A stretch of DNA of 64,000 nucleotides from Dictyobacter arantiisoli (GTDB lineage: Bacteria > Chloroflexota > Ktedonobacteria > Ktedonobacterales > Ktedonobacteraceae): assembly GCF_008326305.1 (NCBI RefSeq), contig NZ_BIXY01000007.1, forward strand, positions 55,143 through 119,142, read 5' to 3'. The notes beneath the pieces were generated by a model, which saw only the letters and a list, made by a program, of their open reading frames with translations, did not search any database and was not told the DNA's origin. This document shows, in pieces, positions 4,126-63,900 of the stretch (positions within the stretch are counted from its first letter, which is position 1; every line of letters begins with the position of its first letter). Position numbers and translations under genes: made by a program.

Positions 4126-5640
4126 ATGATTGCACGCATGAAACGACAAGGATGGCCGCTAGGCGTTCGGCTCCAACTGATGCTCTGGTATACATGCGTC
4201 TTCGCCGTTCTCCTCTTTATCTCAGGCGTTATTCTTTATAAACATTTGCAAACGTCGCTGGCAGGCAGCCTGGATACTGCATTGCAAAGCAGGGCCGAGC
4301 AGATTGCCGGTGAAATCTACCTCGACCATGGAACGATCCAGATGCATGAGTCGGTAGGCGAACTGCCAGGCTTTGAGCATAGTGTCAACAATCATCCTCT
4401 CTCCTATAGTGATGTCAATGATGATATTCTGGTACGTATTCTGGACGCGCAGGGCAAACCATTTCGTATGACGACCGCCTTTCGTTCTATTCACGTACCT
4501 GAGAGCAGCATCACACAACCGCTCCAGGGCAATCCCTGGCAGGATACCATCGAAACGATAGATGGCAAGCAAGATGCACGTATCTATAGCCGCTCGGTCA
4601 CGAAAGATGGGAAATTAATTGCCGTTATCCAGGTGGGACAATTTATGGGGGATTTGCAAAATACCCTCCATCATGTGGCAAAAGAATTTATTTTTCTGGG
4701 TGTCGTGGTGCTCTTATTCAGTGCTCTGGGGAGTTACTGGCTGGCGGCACTGGCCTTCGCGCCCATCCATAATCTTATTCGGACAGCACGCTCGATCAAA
4801 GAGGGAGACCTGAAGCAGCGCGTGCCCGTACCCGCCGCACGCGATGAGGTCCGTTTCCTGGCCCTTACACTCAACGAGATGATTGCCAGTCTGGATCTGG
4901 TATTCGAGCGTCAGCGACGCTTTGTAGCTGATGCCTCGCATGAACTACGCACACCGGTAGCGGTAATCAGAAGCACAACCGATGTAGCTCTCCTGCATGG
5001 GAACGCACAAGAAGACTATATTGCCGTGATTCGCAATGTGAACCTTGAGGCCGAGCGCCTGGGACGGCTCATCAACGATTTGCTGGCCCTGGCACGCGGG
5101 GATGAGGGACAAACCAAACTGGAACACGAAGCTGTCCGCCTGGATCAGCTGGCGGATGTTGTAACGGCTCATGCGGAAACTCTGGCGGAAGAACGCCAGG
5201 TTACATTACAGTGTACAGACCTGCAAGCAACGACCGTGGAAGGCGATGAAACACGCCTGATCCAAATGATTATGAATCTAATCGACAATGCCATTATTTA
5301 TACCAATGCTGGCGGCTCTATCAGCGTATCGGTCACTCATAATGCCCAACAGGCCATCCTGACCATTCGGGATACTGGCATTGGTATCGCCCCTGAACAT
5401 CTCTCGCATATATTTGAACGCTTTTATCGCATCGATCCGGCACGCATCCATGATGGTGGCGGCAGTAGCGGCCTGGGACTGGCTATCGTACAATGGACCA
5501 TTCAGGCACATCGAGGGACCATCAATGTTGACAGCCAACTCGGACAGGGAAGTACCTTCACAATCACCTTACCACTGGCTCCAGAACCAAATAAACAGTT
5601 GCTCAAAATCTCCAGAGACAACCACAAACAAAGTGTTTGA
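4126..5640 (+). CDS. Transmembrane sensor histidine kinase
   Basis: A two-component sensor that autophosphorylates on His and passes phosphate to a response regulator. Residues 15-37 and about 185-210 are membrane helices that bracket an outside sensor domain of about 145 residues; a HAMP linker follows, then the dimerisation/phosphoacceptor helix with SHELRTP near residue 272, and the ATPase domain with N (LIDNAI), G1 (DTGIGI) and G2 (GLGLAIV) boxes. Overall layout is that of CusS/BaeS-like kinases. The start has AAGGAG 7 bp upstream. No response regulator gene adjoins, so it is an orphan here. Its last codons and stop lie within the boundary sequence shared with the hairpin element that follows. 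Confidence 0.93.
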   Translation: MIARMKRQGWPLGVRLQLMLWYTCVFAVLLFISGVILYKHLQTSLAGSLDTALQSRAEQIAGEIYLDHGTIQMHESVGELPGFEHSVNNHPLSYSDVNDDILVRILDAQGKPFRMTTAFRSIHVPESSITQPLQGNPWQDTIETIDGKQDARIYSRSVTKDGKLIAVIQVGQFMGDLQNTLHHVAKEFIFLGVVVLLFSALGSYWLAALAFAPIHNLIRTARSIKEGDLKQRVPVPAARDEVRFLALTLNEMIASLDLVFERQRRFVADASHELRTPVAVIRSTTDVALLHGNAQEDYIAVIRNVNLEAERLGRLINDLLALARGDEGQTKLEHEAVRLDQLADVVTAHAETLAEERQVTLQCTDLQATTVEGDETRLIQMIMNLIDNAIIYTNAGGSISVSVTHNAQQAILTIRDTGIGIAPEHLSHIFERFYRIDPARIHDGGGSSGLGLAIVQWTIQAHRGTINVDSQLGQGSTFTITLPLAPEPNKQLLKISRDNHKQSV

Positions 5641-5828
5641 TTCCCATGCTCTCCACCATCTCTGTGCATGAGTTTTCGCACCTGCGGTGCTCAAAACAGT
5701 TTTTAGTGTGTGGTGCAGGAAAGGTGCACAGCACCTTTCCTGCACCACACACTAAAAAGGGCGCAGGCGCGCACGCGCCTGCCAGCCAGGGAGCAGCAAG
5801 ATCCCGCTGGTATTGGGGGGCTGACACT
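5632..5828. repeat. Variable-hairpin element, copy A
   Basis: A non-coding element with these parts in order: boundary AGTGTTTGATTCCCAT; a conserved arm ending in a small hairpin (GCACC-TGC-GGTGC, about 5678-5690); a perfect 28-bp stem with a 3-nt loop at 5700-5758; a GC-rich small hairpin (GCAGGCGCG-CA-CGCGCCTGC); a conserved arm containing AGCAAGATCCCGCTGG; and a boundary whose complement reads AGTGTCAGCCCCCCAAT, forming an imperfect terminal inverted repeat. Copies with the same flanks but different stem sequence lie at 22550, 48024, 50071, 52262, 60872 and 63802. The T5/A5 ends of the stem could also make it a bidirectional terminator for the histidine kinase gene. Confidence 0.75.
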
Positions 5829-5951
5829 CTCAAAGAGAAAATCAAAAAATAGGGAAACCCTGCCTGTCGGTGACCTGATACAATAGAGCCATCAACTTAA
5901 CATGCCAGCGGCTTATGCGCGAAATTTTTAGAGTGAAGAAGAGAACGATAT

Positions 5952-9124: not shown

Positions 9125-9196
9125 GCCGAAGTAGCTCAGTGGTAGAGCAACGGTTTTGTAAACCGTCGGTCGTCAGTTCAATCCTGACCTTCGGCT
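9125..9196 (+). tRNA. tRNA-Thr(TGT), copy 1
   Basis: A 72-nt cloverleaf: acceptor GCCGAAG/CTTCGGC, D stem GCTC/GAGC, anticodon stem ACGGT/ACCGT with loop TTTGTAA (anticodon TGT, reads ACA), variable loop of five bases, T stem GTCAG/CTGAC with TTCAATC. Discriminator T; CCA is not encoded. A T run (CTCTTTTTTTTGCC) right after it can serve as terminator. Identical in sequence to the copy at 13526. Confidence 0.95.
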
Positions 9197-9203
9197 CTTT
9201 TTT

Positions 9204-9434
9204 TTGCCTTTTTTCAACAACCTCCCTTCCTTCCTCACCCCATCCATATTTTTAGCAGTTTCTAGAAATGGCAAAAACTATGCCTTCAGGACGGCTAGCC
9301 TTCAGGCCACAGGATATGACAAACTCTTCGTTGGCTCACTTGGTGGCGGTCAACCCAGAGTTATTGCGGCAGATGGTGCAGGTGGTATCGCCCAAAACGC
9401 AGTACTAAATATTGCAGGTTGGACCACAATCTAA
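9204..9434 (+). pseudogene. Possible gene remnant with a beta-propeller-like tail
   Basis: A frame of 76 codons begins only 8 bp after the tRNA and has no ribosome site. Its second half (YAFRTASLQATGY, LFVGSLGGGQPRVIA, NIAGWT) has the rhythm of a TolB/PD40-type propeller blade, as if it were the last part of a longer exported protein. It may be the tail of a gene lost by rearrangement near the duplicated tRNA. The identity is not secure. Confidence 0.3.
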
Positions 9435-13525: not shown

Positions 13526-13597
13526 GCCGAAGTAGCTCAGTGGTAGAGCAACGGTTTTGTAAACCGTCGGTCGTCAGTTCAATCCTGACCTTCGGCT
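13526..13597 (+). tRNA. tRNA-Thr(TGT), copy 2
   Basis: Same 72-nt sequence as the copy at 9125, base for base, including discriminator T and lack of encoded CCA. Downstream the shared sequence continues briefly (GCCTTTTTTCA) and then diverges. Confidence 0.95.
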
Positions 13598-13692
13598 CTT
13601 CTTTTTGCCTTTTTTCAGCACCCTCCAGTTCCCATCGCTCGCATCCTTGCGGCGTGGACATCTTTACGACATAGAGATCGCAAGATCGAGTG

Positions 13693-22545: not shown

Positions 22546-22549
22546 GATT

Positions 22550-22650
22550 TCCGCACCAATGCCGCTCCAAAGGGTTTATAATGGGATGCAGAGAATGTGC
22601 CTGGCACGTTCTCTGCATCCCATTATAAACAGGGCACCCTGCAAGCCTGC
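22550..22650. repeat. Variable-hairpin element, copy G
   Basis: Stem of 27 bp with 3-nt loop CTG at 22574-22630; the only non-Watson-Crick pair is T opposite G. Left flank CCGCACCAATGCCGCTCC and right flank AGGGCACCCTGC-AAGC-CTGC are degenerate forms of the flanks of copy A. Stem sequence is unrelated to the other copies. It lies right after the ABC operon. Confidence 0.55.
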
Positions 22651-29000: not shown

Positions 29001-29002
29001 TT

Positions 29003-29065
29003 ATTACGCCACCAAAAACATAGCCCTCGCCATTTCGGCGAGGGCTATGTTTTTGGTGGCGTAAT
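29003..29065. terminator. Long-stem terminator after sdhB
   Basis: A perfect 29-bp stem (arm ATTACGCCACCAAAAACATA...) with a 5-nt loop ATTTC begins 3 bp after the sdhB stop. It is far longer than a normal intrinsic terminator and lacks a T run. Confidence 0.75.
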
Positions 29066-29460
29066 AGCAATAAATTATGACAAAGATTGGTTCTGTAACT
29101 CTTTGCTATCGTACAACAGCAAAGGTAAGCCATCCCTCCCAGGGCCTCATCCTTCGCGGTCTGGGCCCCTTTCTTCCCAAGCAGAGAAGGGCCCGATCCC
29201 TTGTGGTCGGGCTCTGTTGCTCGCACGCTCAAGTACGCTCCATCACCCCCAAATTGTTCATGTATTTTGATACTTCAATTCAGATTTTGCCTGCAATAAC
29301 TCTCTATTTCTGCCAAGAGACAAAATATTATAGTATTGCTATTGCCGAGCTTTTTATGTAAAATAAAAGATAGAGATACATACATATTTATTTTTTATAC
29401 ATTTGTAAAAACATCTATAGTTAAAGCCCGCCAGAGAGGCTTGTTATCTCTGAAAAAATA
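29066..29460. other. 395-bp spacer
   Basis: No gene is seen. A weak hairpin with GCCCGA/TCGGGC arms lies near 29191-29212. The last 150 bp are AT-rich and likely contain the promoter of the gene at 29461. Confidence 0.4.
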
Positions 29461-40808: not shown

Positions 40809-42572
40809 ATGGAAAATACAGAAAAAAAGAATGCTACTCAAGAAATAATCCATGACAAAGAGCTCAGAGAGGAGTTCTCAGGCACATCATCGCAGGCCAC
40901 GCAGGTCATCGATGCCACACCGGATAGTGGTGCTACCTCCAATGCTACTCCAGCGCTGGATGCTATTCCGGATACTGGCGACGTGCCCGCTCTGGCTCAA
41001 ATCGAAGATGCCTCGTCCACACATGAAAAGGAGCTATATATGCACCAGGTTGTTGATGCCAACCCGGATAGCAATTCAGAGCCCCAGATTGTTGACGCCA
41101 ACCCGGACACTACCTCGGAGTCCCAGACTATTGATGCTCGCCTGGATACCACTTCCGAGTCTAAGATCGTTGATACTAGCCTGGATACTACTTCCGAGTC
41201 TAAGATCGTTGACGCCAGCCTGGATACTACTTCCGAGTCTAAGATCGTTGACGCCAATCCGCAAAACAAATCAGCGTCCCAGGATGCTGATTCTACCGTA
41301 AAATTTACGATCCAGCCTGCTGTAAGCGAAATGGATAAAGAAGATGGGATAGAGCAAAAGCAAGATCAGGACCACTCTCTGTCCCATAAAAAGGGCAAAG
41401 ATAAGAAGCGGGACAAAAAGAAACAGCAGTCTTCGCAGGTTGTCCGGGCTGAAACAGTACCAGCGGAAGAGGTCCCAACAGTACCCATCGGTTCACTTCA
41501 ATCAATTAGTACGCTCAAACCAGCCGTGTCAGTACATTCTGTTGCATCAATGCGTGCCGTCGGAGTACACACGCCATTGGTGGCTCAGCCAGTAGAATAT
41601 CGCCGTGGGCTGAGTGAATGGATTGAAATCTGGCGTGATGGCATGCGCCCGGGTTATTTACCCCTCTCGCTGATGCCAATCATTCTCGGTAGCGTCCTGG
41701 CCTGGACCCAGAGCCTGACAGCTCAACATCCATTTGGACACTTCAACATAATCAACTTTGCGCTCGCACTTATCTCAGCAATCATTCTCCAATCTGGCGC
41801 ACACTTGATTAATGATTACTATGATTATCAACGCGGTGTTGATGCCAGTAATACTATGGGTCCCGGTGGCCTGATCCAGCAAGGACTGGTCAAGGCACCA
41901 CGTATGTTATACATTGGCTTAGGTCTCCTGGGCCTGGGAGGTGTTGTTGGTCTGCTGGCATCCCTGGCCGGTGGTCCATTGGTCTGTCTGTTCGGTCTGA
42001 TCATTGTCTTATGCGCGTACTTCTTTAGTGCCAGCCCCAAAGCGCTCTCAACCCTGGGCCTGAGCGAACTGGTCGGCTTTATAACCTTTGGATTATTAAG
42101 CGTCATGGGCGCATACATGATCCAGACACATGGACAGTTATCCGTTGCAGCCTTTCACTATAGCTTGCCACTTGGTTTCCTGGCCGCGGCCACCATTTAC
42201 GCCAATAATATGCGAGATATTGAGGGAGATGCTCACGTTAACAAGCGAACCCTGGCAACACTCCTTGGACTGCGCTGGAGTCGGATCGCATATATCATTT
42301 TGATGCTCGCAGCGTATCTGGTCGTCGTGCTGCTCGGTGTGCCACATACTCGCCCTCACTATGTCCTGATCGCACTGTGGACGCTGCCCGGACTGGTAGT
42401 CGCGATCAGTGGTGTCCTGCGTACAGAGATTTCAACCGGCTTTGATAATGTCATGCGTCAGACATTAAAAATCTACGTACAATTCACCATCCTACTCGCG
42501 ATTGGCCTGATCATCGCCTACGCAATCCCGGTCATCCCTAAAATACCAGCCAACCTGCTCAAACTTCCCTGA
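40809..42572 (+). CDS. menA: UbiA-family prenyltransferase (MenA-like) with long repetitive N-terminus
   Basis: The last 330 residues are a membrane prenyltransferase with eight or nine helices, which by family joins a polyprenyl chain to 1,4-dihydroxy-2-naphthoate in menaquinone synthesis. The two Asp-rich motifs are NDYYDYQRGVD (about residue 337) and NNMRDIEGDAHVNKRTLA (about 470), the latter typical of MenA. The first 250 residues are unusual: acidic, Ser/Thr-rich, with five 13-residue repeats (TTSESKIVDASLD) and then a Lys-rich block (KKGKDKKRDKKKQQ). No such part is needed for catalysis. The ATG follows GAGGGGGG. A 68-nt palindrome follows the stop. Confidence 0.85.
   Translation: MENTEKKNATQEIIHDKELREEFSGTSSQATQVIDATPDSGATSNATPALDAIPDTGDVPALAQIEDASSTHEKELYMHQVVDANPDSNSEPQIVDANPDTTSESQTIDARLDTTSESKIVDTSLDTTSESKIVDASLDTTSESKIVDANPQNKSASQDADSTVKFTIQPAVSEMDKEDGIEQKQDQDHSLSHKKGKDKKRDKKKQQSSQVVRAETVPAEEVPTVPIGSLQSISTLKPAVSVHSVASMRAVGVHTPLVAQPVEYRRGLSEWIEIWRDGMRPGYLPLSLMPIILGSVLAWTQSLTAQHPFGHFNIINFALALISAIILQSGAHLINDYYDYQRGVDASNTMGPGGLIQQGLVKAPRMLYIGLGLLGLGGVVGLLASLAGGPLVCLFGLIIVLCAYFFSASPKALSTLGLSELVGFITFGLLSVMGAYMIQTHGQLSVAAFHYSLPLGFLAAATIYANNMRDIEGDAHVNKRTLATLLGLRWSRIAYIILMLAAYLVVVLLGVPHTRPHYVLIALWTLPGLVVAISGVLRTEISTGFDNVMRQTLKIYVQFTILLAIGLIIAYAIPVIPKIPANLLKLP
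41067..41261 (+). repeat. Five tandem 39-bp units in the menA-like gene
   Basis: Units begin at 41067, 41106, 41145, 41184 and 41223 and encode 13-residue repeats. The last three are nearly identical in DNA, the first two diverged, which suggests stepwise growth toward the 3' side. Confidence 0.9.
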
Positions 42573-42580
42573 TATACTCC

Positions 42581-42648
42581 AAATTCATTCCCATCCAAAG
42601 AAGGCCCGATGCGCGCGCATCGGGCCTTCTTTGGATGGGAATGAATTT
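42581..42648. terminator. 68-nt perfect palindrome after the menA-like gene
   Basis: Two perfect 34-nt arms without spacer, 8 bp after the stop. The inner part (CAAAGAAGGCCCGA) is shared with the terminator at 16670 while the outer part is unique. The rest of the 310-bp spacer before tatD shows no gene. Confidence 0.75.
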
Positions 42649-42882
42649 GTTAATAAGGAACTATTCGTCCTGATGATCCAATTACTCTATCCGAGACACA
42701 GGACATCGCACAAAAAGCAAAATATGAACAAGCGACTAAAGAAGCGATGGAACTCACAATTTGACACTATTCCAAATCTTCATCTATACTACAAGTAAAT
42801 AAAGTAACCTGGGAGAGAGAAAGCCAGTCCGCTTTAACTCTCCCTTTCTTATGCCAACTTCTAATGAGAAAGGATCAAGAGG

Positions 42883-48023: not shown

Positions 48024-48212
48024 AGTGTTTGATTCCCATCACCAGCGGGATCTTGCTGCTCACCTGCTGGCAGGCGCAGGCGCGCCTGCGCCCTTTTTAT
48101 TGTATGTTGCTGTAAATGAGCATAGCTCATTTACAGCAACATACAATAAAAAGTGGTTTGAGCACCATTGGTGCGAAAACTCATGCACCAGGATGGTGAA
48201 GACCATAGAGTT
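48024..48212. repeat. Variable-hairpin element, copy B (inverted relative to A)
   Basis: The boundary AGTGTTTGATTCCCAT is the same as at copy A, but what follows is the complement of the far end of A: ACCAGCGGGATCTTGCTGCTC, GC-rich hairpin (GGCGCAGGCGCGCCTGCGCC), then a perfect 28-bp stem with loop ATA (48094-48152), then TTTGAGCACC-ATT-GGTGCGAAAACTCATGCAC. Stem length, loop length and T5/A5 ends equal those of copy A; the 23 inner base pairs are unrelated. Confidence 0.75.
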
Positions 48213-49734: not shown

Positions 49735-50070
49735 ACCAGTCTCCTTCACTAAACACTTGAAAACGGAACATTTACGACTCAAGGCTGCTCACGTATCACA
49801 TGGAAAGAATAGAAAACGAACGTTGCTGAGCGCCAGAATGACGATATCTGGCCTATTCTTCTGATGGAACTTTACAGCACAAAGCTATCAAACATCCCTG
49901 ACCACAACTACTTTTGAGAGAACGCCGAACCTATAAAAGAGGCAAGTTCATGGCTATTCAGTAGATCGTATGCATCAGCATCGAATACAATACACCAGTT
50001 CCATCCGGATGGGGAATATAAACTCCAGTATAAACCAATCCAACACATCAAGCAAGCGCTATTAAATAGA

Positions 50071-50190
50071 CAGGCACACAAACGCCTGCACCCTATTTAC
50101 TCTGTGGTGTAGAAAATGTACTTTGAACATTTTCTACACCACAGAGTAAATAATTCTAAGCACCTCAGGTGAGAAAAATCATATGGGAAG
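50071..50190. repeat. Variable-hairpin element, copy D
   Basis: A perfect 26-bp stem with a 7-nt loop (50094-50152, span 59 nt). Left flank CAGGCACACAAACGCCTGCACCC and right flank AAGCACC-TCA-GGTGAGAAAAATCAT correspond to the flanks of copy B in the same orientation, more diverged. It fills the end of the 480-bp spacer beyond the acetamidase gene on the minus strand; the rest of the spacer shows no gene. Confidence 0.65.
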
Positions 50191-52235: not shown

Positions 52236-52261
52236 TCGATAGGCATCAAACTCCCAGATGC

Positions 52262-52410
52262 TTATCTGCGGCAGGTGCTCACGCGCCAGCATCCTTATAT
52301 ATATATTGCAGGAAAAGTGTAAAGAACTTTTCCTGCAATATATATACCTATTTGAGCACCCTGGGTGCAAAAAAATCATACGTAAAAATCGCGAAGGCCA
52401 TAGGCATCTA
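52262..52410. repeat. Variable-hairpin element, copy C
   Basis: A perfect 21-bp stem with a 7-nt loop (52298-52346), between convergent radC and lon. Right flank TTTGAGCACC-CTG-GGTGCAAAAAAATCAT and GGCCATAGGCA match the B orientation; left flank GCAGGTGCTCACGCGCCAGC is strongly diverged. Likely used as bidirectional terminator. Confidence 0.6.
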
Positions 52411-60871: not shown

Positions 60872-61010
60872 TGTGTCAGTCTTCTATGCCTCATCCATGA
60901 ATTTTCACGCCTTTGGAGCTCAAAAGGTTTTATAGTATGGTACCGAAGGGATGCTGAGTGTATCCCTTCGGTACCATACTATAAAAAAGGGCGCAGCCGC
61001 ATCAGCACTT
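60872..61010. repeat. Variable-hairpin element, copy E
   Basis: A perfect 25-bp stem (27 with a G-T and a C-G pair inside) spanning 59 nt at 60928-60986. Left flank CATGAATTTTCACGCC-TTT-GGAGCTCAAAA and right flank GGGCGCAGCCGC match the A orientation. The outer boundary TGTGTCAGTCTTCTATG resembles the A boundary. The remaining 325 bp upstream (from 60547) hold no gene. Confidence 0.65.
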
Positions 61011-61023
61011 GTCCACAGTCACT

Positions 61024-62623: not shown

Positions 62624-63781
62624 ATGACACCGCACACACTGAAAACACGTAATCACTCACCACTATCTCAGATTGTACGCGAGTATCGAGATAAATTTAA
62701 CCTGACGCAGGAACAATTAGCACACGATCTCTCAGTCGATGTACGTACCTTACGCCGTTGGGAAAGCGGAGAAACGGTGCTCAATGATGTACGAGAACTA
62801 CGGCGCGTAGCCGATCTTTTAGGGGCAGAACCCGAACGTCTGGGCATCACTAAATCCACATACACAGCCGTAACGCTAGAACAAGTTGATAGCATGCTGG
62901 AACATATCTGGTATCTGATCGATGTTGCACGCAGCATGGAAGCTGATATGCTGATCACAAAGCTGATCCAGGATCTTAACGCTCAGCTGACCGATGAAAA
63001 TGTTGAATTGCTCCGCCGCCTGGCTCAGGCCTTACATCTGGCTGGCTATGTCAAATCGGTGACAACACGTTCCAATGAAGCCTATCATTCACTGCATCAA
63101 TATGCGGAAATGGAGCGTGTGGCTCGCTTGATCCAGGACGATACCCTGTTAAATATCGCTCTGACCTATGAGGGGGATATGTATTGCCGGGGCGGCAATA
63201 TCCAACAGGGCATTCAATATCTGGAGGCGGCCCGCGATACCACTCCGCGAGCGGATACCGCTGCACGTGGCAATGGTATCCAATTGCTTGGTCGCGCCTA
63301 CTTACGCGTCAACCAGATCAAATCCTTTGAACAGGCAATGGCCCAGGCTGAGGAACTCTCACAACAAATTGATCCTCGCCACAGCAGTACGCGTGGACAA
63401 TATAGCCTCGGAACCGTATATGAAGAATATGGACGCAGCTATACACGCCTGGGAAAAATCCAGCCCGCCATGGATTATCTGGATAAGGCGGAAAAAACAT
63501 TGGAGCCCACCAAGCACTGGGAAATATTGATCAAGACAGCCCGTGCAATGGCACTGGTACGGGGAGGCGAGATTCAAAGCGGAGTCCAGCTGGCCGTCGA
63601 ATCGGTAGAACAATGCCGGGAGTACGGCACAGTGCGTCTGATGGAACGCATCTATGGTATCCAGAATCATATTGATCGCCTGACACGCGACATTGGGATG
63701 GTAGGGGCCAAGCTGCATGAAGCTCTGGATGGTCCGGTGGAATATGCCATCAAAAGTGATGATTCACCTACGGTGCTATAA
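62624..63781 (+). CDS. XRE-type regulator with TPR domain
   Basis: A 385-residue DNA-binding protein. Residues about 13-70 are a helix-turn-helix of the Cro/CI type (FNLTQEQLAHDLSVDVRTLRRWESG). The rest is helical with tetratricopeptide-like repeats (YEGDMYCRGGNIQQGIQYLEAA, in part; SLGTVYEEYGRSYTRLGKIQPAMDYLDKAEK, in part). Such HTH-TPR proteins often sense a small peptide or protein and are common in Ktedonobacteria and actinobacteria. AAAGGG lies before the ATG. No target can be named. Confidence 0.82.
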   Translation: MTPHTLKTRNHSPLSQIVREYRDKFNLTQEQLAHDLSVDVRTLRRWESGETVLNDVRELRRVADLLGAEPERLGITKSTYTAVTLEQVDSMLEHIWYLIDVARSMEADMLITKLIQDLNAQLTDENVELLRRLAQALHLAGYVKSVTTRSNEAYHSLHQYAEMERVARLIQDDTLLNIALTYEGDMYCRGGNIQQGIQYLEAARDTTPRADTAARGNGIQLLGRAYLRVNQIKSFEQAMAQAEELSQQIDPRHSSTRGQYSLGTVYEEYGRSYTRLGKIQPAMDYLDKAEKTLEPTKHWEILIKTARAMALVRGGEIQSGVQLAVESVEQCREYGTVRLMERIYGIQNHIDRLTRDIGMVGAKLHEALDGPVEYAIKSDDSPTVL

Positions 63782-63801
63782 CAGTCTGCACTTCTATAAA
63801 G

Positions 63802-63900
63802 AGTGTGTGTGACCCCATCCCTGGCGGGATCTTTTTGTTCGCCTGCACACGGGTCACCCCGAATTGTTCGAACATCGGTTCGAACAATTCGGGGTGGTAG
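63802..63900. repeat. Variable-hairpin element, copy F
   Basis: Boundary AGTGTGTGTGACCCCAT, then CCCTGGCGGGATCTTTTTGTTCGCCTGC (B orientation), then a perfect 19-bp stem with a 4-nt loop at 63855-63896 (arm CACCCCGAATTGTTCGAAC). The distal conserved arm is not seen, so the copy is partial. No gene is seen from here to the window end. Confidence 0.55.

What the first reader, a model, noticed from the sequence alone, without database searches (positions are those of the whole stretch)
5632..5828. A family of non-coding elements with conserved flanks and a hairpin whose stem sequence differs in every copy
Seven intergenic loci (5632, 22550, 48024, 50071, 52262, 60872, 63802) share flanks: GCACC-N3-GGTGC next to CTCATG-like words on one side, and a GC-rich mini-hairpin plus CCAGCGGGATCTTGCTGCTC on the other. 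Between them sits a long hairpin that pairs perfectly or nearly so in each copy but has unrelated stem sequence. Stem/loop sizes are 28/3, 27/3, 28/3, 26/7, 21/7, 25/9 and 19/4; total spans are 59, 57, 59, 59, 49, 59 and 42 nt. Ordinary repeats diverge by point mutation, so stems should stay recognisably alike while flanks diverge. Here the stems are replaced wholesale while flanks and length are kept. That implies a process that writes or swaps inverted-repeat content into a fixed frame (cruciform or hairpin gene conversion, fold-back copying of short pieces, or selection on hairpins made from outside DNA).
Basis: partly seen in the sequence, partly recalled or inferred. Interest (0 to 1): 0.85.

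Follow-up and report, generated by a model that had tools for sequence, protein, structure and literature searches.

The report
Mobile DNA repeat with self-copying hairpin
A 203-letter, likely mobile DNA repeat with about 150 near-complete copies in this bacterial genome carries a long hairpin whose two halves differ together from copy to copy and whose loop occurs in both orientations, likely because replication copies one half over the other; this matters because matched changes of this kind are usually read as proof of a selected structure.

Summary
Six of the seven loci belong to one MITE-like element: modal length 203 bp, terminal inverted repeats, 3-bp target duplication (67 of 96 testable copies, mostly TNA), a near-invariant TTTTCGCACC-N3-GGTGCTCA box, a ~28-bp hairpin with a 3-nt loop, and a GC-rich mini-hairpin. 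The 63853 hairpin is unrelated. 149 near-complete copies were recovered; exact boxes occur in 4 of 151 genomes searched, all of this genus. Stems form gradually diverging families (93 arm types in 144 distinct copies), yet 3896 of 3962 stem pairs are Watson-Crick. Rare bases coincide as complementary pairs in the same copy 21 times (0.25 expected). G·T (16) is no commoner than A·C (18), so RNA selection is not indicated. Loop orientation looks randomised: same 110, inverted 109, other 11 pairs of copies. The shorter hairpins of the same copies show almost no paired change. In a second repeat family, two copies show one arm overwritten by the other. Best reading: DNA-level arm copying and loop inversion by template switching, plus recombination between copies that reassorts stems and flanks. 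The mechanism is a known kind; the family is an unusually clean bacterial case. Selection on the DNA hairpin is not excluded.

The parts
5629..5831 (+). Complete element copy (203 bp), the locus of the finding; flanked by AAA on both sides
   Evidence: ends located; sequence
5629..5647 (+). Left terminal inverted repeat CAAAGTGTTTGATTCCCAT; its TGA is the stop codon of the ORF ending at 5640
5673..5696 (+). Near-invariant box TTTTCGCACC-N3-GGTGCTCAAAA containing the 5-bp hairpin
   Evidence: diversity 0.022 over box sites
5700..5758 (+). Long perfect hairpin: arms 5700-5727 and 5731-5758, loop 5728-5730
5763..5782 (+). GC-rich mini-hairpin (8-bp arms, 4-nt loop)
5813..5831 (-). Right terminal inverted repeat GAGAGTGTCAGCCCCCCAA, read on the minus strand
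22547..22637 (+). Degenerate copy; hairpin 22574-22630
48043..48188 (-). Core of a copy; hairpin 48093-48153; right-end repeat begins at about 48021
50069..50182 (-). Diverged copy; hairpin 50094-50152
52258..52373 (-). Diverged copy; hairpin 52298-52346 (shortened stem)
60896..61017 (+). Diverged copy; hairpin 60928-60986
63755..63898 (+). Box-like and right-end-like fragments beside an unrelated hairpin (63853-63898); not an intact copy

Best explanation
This is a MITE-like repeat family whose central hairpin stays matched while it evolves, likely because DNA replication now and then switches template inside the hairpin, copies one arm over the other and sometimes inverts the loop. Shown: about 203-bp elements with terminal inverted repeats and 3-bp target duplications; stems that vary between copies by changes in both arms at once; loops present in both orientations at about equal numbers; almost no paired change in the two shorter hairpins of the same copies; stems weakly linked to the flanks on either side. 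Inferred: in the fold-back form, the growing strand folds back on itself, loop-proximal pairs prime it, and the outer arm is rewritten as the complement of the first arm; in the cross-strand form, the polymerase crosses to the other strand within the palindrome and the loop is inverted. Also inferred: recombination or gene conversion between copies reassorts stems and flanks, occasionally producing chimeric unmatched stems that are later corrected. Movement by a transposase that makes TNA target duplications (IS5-type, label recalled) is inferred; no such partner was found.
For: Family: 187 distinct places, 149 near-complete; 3-bp duplication in 67 of 96 copies with both ends recognisable, shuffled mean 12.3 and max 22, modal length 203 in 54 of 96. 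Matched arms: 3896 of 3962 stem cells Watson-Crick against a shuffled mean of 3181, max 3226 (142 distinct rows after dropping a misaligned and an N-containing copy); on alignment A1 99.3% against 90.3% shuffled and 33-58% when slid. Paired change: 547 two-arm cells against 66 not Watson-Crick. Rare bases (in at most 2 rows): 35 in the 5' arm, 37 in the 3' arm, 21 coinciding as complements in the same copy; expected 0.25, max 3 of 2000 shuffles. DNA not RNA: G·T 16, A·C 18. Specific to the long hairpin: deviating cells paired 1 of 21 in the 5-bp and 7 of 60 in the 8-bp hairpin, against 548 of 624. Loop inversion: same 110, inverted 109, other 11 among pairs of copies with identical stems; 6 of the 8 stem classes with more than one loop contain an exact inverse; pairs with 1 of 144 flank differences are already inverted. 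Mismatches gather beside the loop: 32 of 707 cells in the five inner pairs, 34 of 3255 in the outer 23, as expected if inner pairs serve as primer. Events caught in a second family: 12 of 14 closed copies have 13-19 matched terminal bases, two have 31 and 37, and the latter joins at a TTTTT that can pair with an upstream AAAAA. Chimeric stem awaiting correction: C14:57696, whose two inner arms belong to different stem families. Other species: boxes picked without regard to stem have a strong hairpin in 24 of 26 (20 perfect) in G003 and 7 of 8 (5 perfect) in G004 (26 of the 73 G003 boxes examined). Precedent: arm homogenisation and spacer inversion by template switching (PMC8604942 abstract and introduction; PMC8794818 abstract and passages).
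Against: No replication intermediate or mutation-accumulation data. 30 of the 51 rare stem changes (14 + 16 unpaired, 21 paired) are still in one arm only, so correction is not immediate. Cells and pairs of copies are not independent events, and linkage decays across the whole element, so common stem states were largely spread by recombination. Rare paired states could come from unsampled copies: one search scored only 150 candidates, and 172 exact boxes exist against 125 held. The stem pair diversity (0.213) is not higher than all flank sites by much (0.168), and rare bases per site are slightly fewer in the stem (72 in 56 sites) than in the flanks (80 in 52 sites), which leaves room for some selection. 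In one search the number of further pair types (20) did not exceed shuffles (19.9). 15 of the 34 outer mismatches lie in the two outermost pairs. Chemistry of the switch (polymerase, nuclease) is untested; an SbcC/SbcD family search was inconclusive.
Confidence: 0.68

Rival explanations
1. Selection keeps the DNA hairpin perfect: a protein, for example a transposase or host factor, must recognise a cruciform or single-strand hairpin, and compensatory mutations are retained while unmatched copies are lost.
For: Near-perfect pairing persists across species with very different stems; the fixed position of the hairpin beside an almost invariant box; [quoted passage not shown]
Against: Does not predict the even split of loop orientation; private complementary changes in both arms are far too frequent for two independent hits (21 against 0.25) unless intermediates are hidden; stem pairs do not evolve more slowly than flanks; short derivatives that lack or are too short to hold the hairpin exist (L206, L210, L213, L219); arm overwriting also occurs in an unrelated repeat family.
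Confidence: 0.2
2. Recombination between copies alone explains the pattern: a limited set of ready-made matched stems is moved between flanks as a cassette.
For: Stem sites are strongly linked to each other (mean V 0.52 within the inner stem) and only weakly to right-flank sites (0.05-0.07); stems differ between copies with identical flanks.
Against: Does not create new matched stems: rare complementary changes in single copies. Crossovers inside a stem should leave unmatched arms, and only few such copies are seen (C14:57696, C46:30050).
Confidence: 0.06
3. The hairpin is a structured RNA under selection (regulatory, stabilising or processed).
For: Covariation as such; intergenic position: 19 of 149 cores lie mostly in ORFs of 150 aa or more, which cover 68% of the held DNA.
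Against: G·T pairs (16) are not commoner than A·C (18); no Rfam match other than three tRNAs in the window at gathering thresholds; both-arm transversions are common.
Confidence: 0.03
4. One reading: stem content is written in wholesale from unrelated or outside DNA.
For: Some window arms do not align with each other beyond shuffles (8 of 15 pairs among the six).
Against: All six window arms have clear relatives among 87 family arms; variable positions and states are shared across the genome. Outside sources of the stems were not searched directly.
Confidence: 0.03

Closest known systems
Template-switch mutation at quasi-palindromes (arm homogenisation and spacer inversion; PMC8604942, PMC8794818, PMC7202029)
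   Same: Both reported outcomes are seen: arms made identical, loop inverted. Double changes without G-U intermediates are also discussed there (abstract, introduction and passages read for the first two; PMC7202029 only as a search listing).
   Different: Those cases are scattered single events in genes, rRNA trees or reporters; here one repeat family in one genome gives about 150 parallel records, with a long stem that varies and short control hairpins in the same copies.
REPINs (PMC3116915, passages read)
   Same: Bacterial intergenic mobile repeat, conserved ends, variable hairpin spacer with frequent compensatory changes and fixed length.
   Different: Here there are terminal inverted repeats and 3-bp target duplications, the two feet of the hairpin are different modules rather than inverted copies of one REP, and loop inversion is documented. 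RAYT association was not searched.
Bacterial MITEs (review PMC10969869, search listing only)
   Same: Short, non-coding, high copy, terminal inverted repeats, target duplication.
   Different: The internal self-matching palindrome and its reassortment against flanks; no autonomous partner found.
IS5-family (IS1031/IS427-type) elements, label recalled
   Same: 3-bp TNA target duplication and GAG-type ends (recalled as typical).
   Different: 21 transposase loci of this genome (PF13340, PF01609) show no matching ends with 2 or fewer mismatches in 15.

Membership tests
MITE (miniature inverted-repeat transposable element) | Terminal inverted repeats | tested here: met
   Both ends recognised within 5 mismatches of 19 in 96 of 149 copies
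MITE (miniature inverted-repeat transposable element) | Target-site duplication | tested here: met
   3 bp in 67 of 96, shuffled mean 12.3, max 22; triplet TNA at 63 of 96 left and 69 of 96 right ends
MITE (miniature inverted-repeat transposable element) | Short, many dispersed copies | tested here: met
   modal 203 bp; 187 places, 149 near-complete
MITE (miniature inverted-repeat transposable element) | Autonomous partner with the same ends | tested here: inconclusive
   No partner: TIR scan of the held 456 kb, 52 TIR pattern matches genome-wide of which the 9 unassigned were read, 21 transposase loci, PF13359 none; other transposase families not searched
IS5-type mobilisation | TNA target duplication (recalled) | tested here: met
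IS5-type mobilisation | Matching ends on an IS5-type transposase gene | tested here: not met
   none at 2 or fewer mismatches of 15 in 21 loci
Template-switch palindrome evolution | Arms homogenised by double changes | tested here: met
Template-switch palindrome evolution | Spacer (loop) inversion | tested here: met
   110 same, 109 inverted, 11 other
Template-switch palindrome evolution | Switch junction visible at microhomology | tested here: met
   one case, in the second repeat family (C123 copy, TTTTT/AAAAA); not shown for the main family
Template-switch palindrome evolution | Direct observation of the event in culture | not testable with these tools
   needs experiment
REPIN | Two inverted REP copies at the feet of the hairpin | tested here: not met
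   left foot (box) and right foot (GGGCGCAGG...) are different sequences in alignment A1
REPIN | RAYT transposase | not tested
   no search for Y1 transposases was run
Intrinsic terminator | T-run directly after the stem | tested here: not met
   by reading alignment A1: GGGC follows on the plus strand, and CTGTTTTG- or GATGTTTG-like sequence on the minus strand; no terminator scan was run
Structured RNA family | Preference for G-U over A-C mismatches | tested here: not met
   16 against 18

The most novel reading that the evidence does not exclude
In Dictyobacter a genome-wide replication habit keeps palindromes self-correcting: arms of long hairpins copy each other and loops flip faster than ordinary point mutation, so long hairpins become fast-evolving DNA that stays perfectly folded with no selection on the fold. 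Covariation, the standard proof of a functional structure, would here be a by-product of copying, and the repeat family would be a natural counter of template switching.
Probability: 0.42. Interest if true: 0.75.

Novelty: new variant of a known kind. Interest (0 to 1): 0.55.

Why it matters
If right, one genome holds about 150 parallel records of how a long palindrome evolves, with shorter hairpins in the same copies as built-in controls. That would let rates of arm copying, loop inversion and correction length be measured, and it is a clear warning that compensatory changes alone do not prove selection on RNA or DNA structure. It would also tie hairpin instability to recombination between repeats and genome rearrangement in Ktedonobacteria.

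Tried and rejected
Structured RNA: Rfam gave only three tRNAs at gathering thresholds, and G·T was not preferred. Seven-member family: the 63853 hairpin was rejected as a stem relative. First pairing counts included C7:116038, whose arms were shifted in the alignment and which alone gave 21 false mismatches; one search repeats the counts without it and without the N-run copy C45:3446. The own-genome box sample (122 of 125 with a hairpin, 105 perfect) was not used as unbiased evidence because its stretches were chosen with the full-element model; the G003 and G004 samples were chosen by the box alone.

Autonomous partner: scans found none. Of the 9 unassigned TIR matches, 8 lie in stretches that match the element profile, and one (L208) shows only an end-like sequence. 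Outside the genus, one search reported short weak hits (20-49 bases) in six genomes (G014, G020, G021, G023, G024, G029) and these were not pursued; the exact box is absent from the 146 genomes outside the genus. Viral contigs: 0. Palindrome nuclease: SbcD-like matches all fall below the curated cut-off and SbcC gave no match in the own genome, but the control genomes also rarely reach the cut-off, so this says nothing. A search for the element in print: searches listed no paper on it; those papers were not opened.

Full report
What is there. The window holds hairpins of 21-29 bp arms at six of the seven reported loci, and these are copies of one repeat. A search of the genome in which the window lies (7.2 Mb, 256 contigs) found many more: 111 aligned pieces with the 5.6-kb copy, and 152 matches with a sequence-only model, which scored just 150 of 4431 candidates. 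Profile search of 456 kb of fetched DNA gave 187 distinct places, 149 of them covering nearly the whole core. The exact box TTTCGCACC-N3-GGTGCTCA occurs 172 times in this genome, 73, 8 and 2 times in three others of the genus, not at all in a fourth, and not in 146 genomes outside it; the reversed control pattern gave none. The fourth genome does match the sequence model (54 matches). Two of the genus genomes have contig lengths equal to those of Dictyobacter aurantiacus S27 and D. kobayashii Uno11, so the genus is Dictyobacter by inference.

Anatomy. From the left: terminal repeat (CAAAGTGTTTGATTCCCAT or GAGAGTGTCAGCCTCCCAT type), the box with its 5-bp hairpin, a 4-nt spacer that varies in types, the long hairpin, a GC-rich 8-bp hairpin, a right tail, and the inverted terminal repeat. 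Of 149 copies, 96 have both ends recognisable; 67 of these carry a 3-bp duplication (shuffled mean 12.3, max 22), mostly TNA, and 54 measure 203 bp. Cores avoid genes: 19 of 149 lie mostly within ORFs of 150 aa or more, which cover 68% of the held DNA. This is a MITE-like element; its mobiliser was not found.

Are the stems unrelated? No. Six window arms have relatives among 87 family arms from other contigs (scores 15-28; best of the shuffles 9-11), and the 63853 arm does not (5 against 6). Genome-wide there are 93 different 5' arms in 144 distinct copies, built from shared states at about ten strongly variable pairs.

Do the arms stay matched? Yes. After removing one misaligned and one N-containing copy, 3896 of 3962 stem cells in 142 distinct rows are Watson-Crick; dealing the 3' letters anew gives a mean of 3181. 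The same holds on the independent 38-row alignment (99.3% against 90.3%, and 33-58% with slid partners; the count of further pair types did not exceed shuffles). Where cells deviate from the commonest pair, 547 do so in both arms and 66 are unpaired.

RNA or DNA? Of the 66 unpaired cells, 16 are G·T, 18 A·C and 32 other. An RNA hairpin should tolerate G-U more than A-C. It is therefore a DNA matter, or no selection at all.

Two hits or one? Bases seen in at most two rows number 35 in the 5' arm and 37 in the 3' arm; 21 of them are complementary partners in the same copy, against 0.25 expected from shuffles (max 3 of 2000). The remaining 30 are unpaired. The same test gives 0 for the 5-bp hairpin and 1 for the 8-bp hairpin. 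Among all deviating cells, 88% are paired in the long stem, 1 of 21 in the 5-bp and 7 of 60 in the 8-bp hairpin. So something acts on the long hairpin and hardly on its short neighbours in the same copies.

Loop inversion. Among pairs of copies with identical stems, the loop is the same in 110, inverted in 109 and otherwise different in 11; six of the eight stem classes with more than one loop hold an exact inverse. Pairs of copies with 1 of 144 flank differences are already inverted. Inversion is thus fast compared with point change. Pairs of copies are not independent, so these numbers describe the state of the family, not a count of events.

Where are the mismatches? 32 of 707 cells in the five loop-proximal pairs and 34 of 3255 in the outer 23, of which 15 in the two outermost. 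In fold-back copying the loop-proximal pairs prime and are not rewritten, which fits; higher damage at the tip would fit too.

Stems and flanks. Linkage is strong inside the stem (inner-inner V 0.52, inner-loop 0.57), moderate with the 4-nt spacer (0.23-0.29), and near nil with the right flank (0.05-0.07); left and right ends are also almost unlinked (0.06). Copies identical over 52 flank sites differ in both arms at 13.7% of stem pairs and in one arm at 1.5%. Copies have therefore recombined freely, and stems travel among flanks. C14:57696 has two inner arms from different stem families, and C46:30050 joins two left halves; these look like fresh recombinants not yet corrected.

A second family. 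Copies of a 94-95-bp repeat ending in CTCGACTTTGTACA often sit beside the element. Of 14 copies with both ends in view, 12 have 13-19 matched terminal bases, and their two inner parts are unlike. In one copy (C24) the arms match over 31 bases because the same inner part stands on both sides, and in another (C123) over 37 bases because the other inner part does, joined at a TTTTT that can pair with the upstream AAAAA. These are what single fold-back copying events look like.

Other species. In G003, 26 boxes (of 73, the ones listed) were read regardless of stem: 24 have a strong hairpin, 20 of them perfect; in G004 7 of 8, 5 perfect. Stem sequences differ widely from this genome's. These are assemblies of two contigs, so the pattern is not a product of the fragmented assembly.

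Mechanism. The most likely reading is template switching during replication, within the strand (arm copying) and across strands (loop inversion), as reported for quasi-palindromes in other systems (PMC8604942, abstract and introduction; PMC8794818, abstract and passages), with recombination between copies on top. Selection for a perfect DNA hairpin is the main rival; it does not explain loop orientation or the second family, but cannot be excluded, and the near-invariant box shows that some part of the element is constrained. The use of the box is unknown.

Verdict. A new MITE-like family with a self-matching hairpin: a known kind of mutation seen in an unusually informative setting.

Noticed in passing
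C24_3178:1410-1473 and C123_549:1372-1461 (L121, L174), 18 distinct copies in held DNA: Second repeat family (CTCGACTTTGTACA ends, usually 94-95 bp), often adjacent to the element; two copies show arm overwriting.
   Followed up: partly
window 42580-42649 and 29002-29066: Perfect hairpins with 33- and 30-bp arms shortly after the stop codons at 42572 and 29000, unrelated to the element; 13 perfect hairpins of 20 bp or more lie outside the element in the 456 kb held.
   Followed up: no
C148:165-516, C33:44190-44542, C54:26201-26553, C91:27903-28251, C7:163-513: Tandem runs of two or more copies about 205 bp apart, sharing the boundary triplet in those inspected.
   Followed up: no
L206:1669-1788, L210:1628-1782, L213:1827-1928, L219:1883-1988: Short derivatives of 102-155 bp between the ends; L210 lacks the stem by profile coordinates, the others are too short to hold it.
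   Followed up: partly
C46:30050-30180 (L147): Two left halves joined through a hairpin with mismatched arms, as expected from recombination between inverted copies.
   Followed up: no
window 5626-5647: The inserted left end supplies the TGA stop of the ORF that ends at 5640.
   Followed up: no
starts or ends of C1, C4, C7, C25, C36, C42, C85, C96, C108, C135, C150, C174: Copies lie at or near contig ends, so the assembly breaks at this repeat and the true copy number is higher.
   Followed up: no
window 9125-9225 and 13526-13626: Two tRNA copies, 97% identical over 101 bases, 4.4 kb apart.
   Followed up: no
window 5673-5696 and its relatives: The box is ten times less variable than the stem; its role is unknown.
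   Followed up: partly
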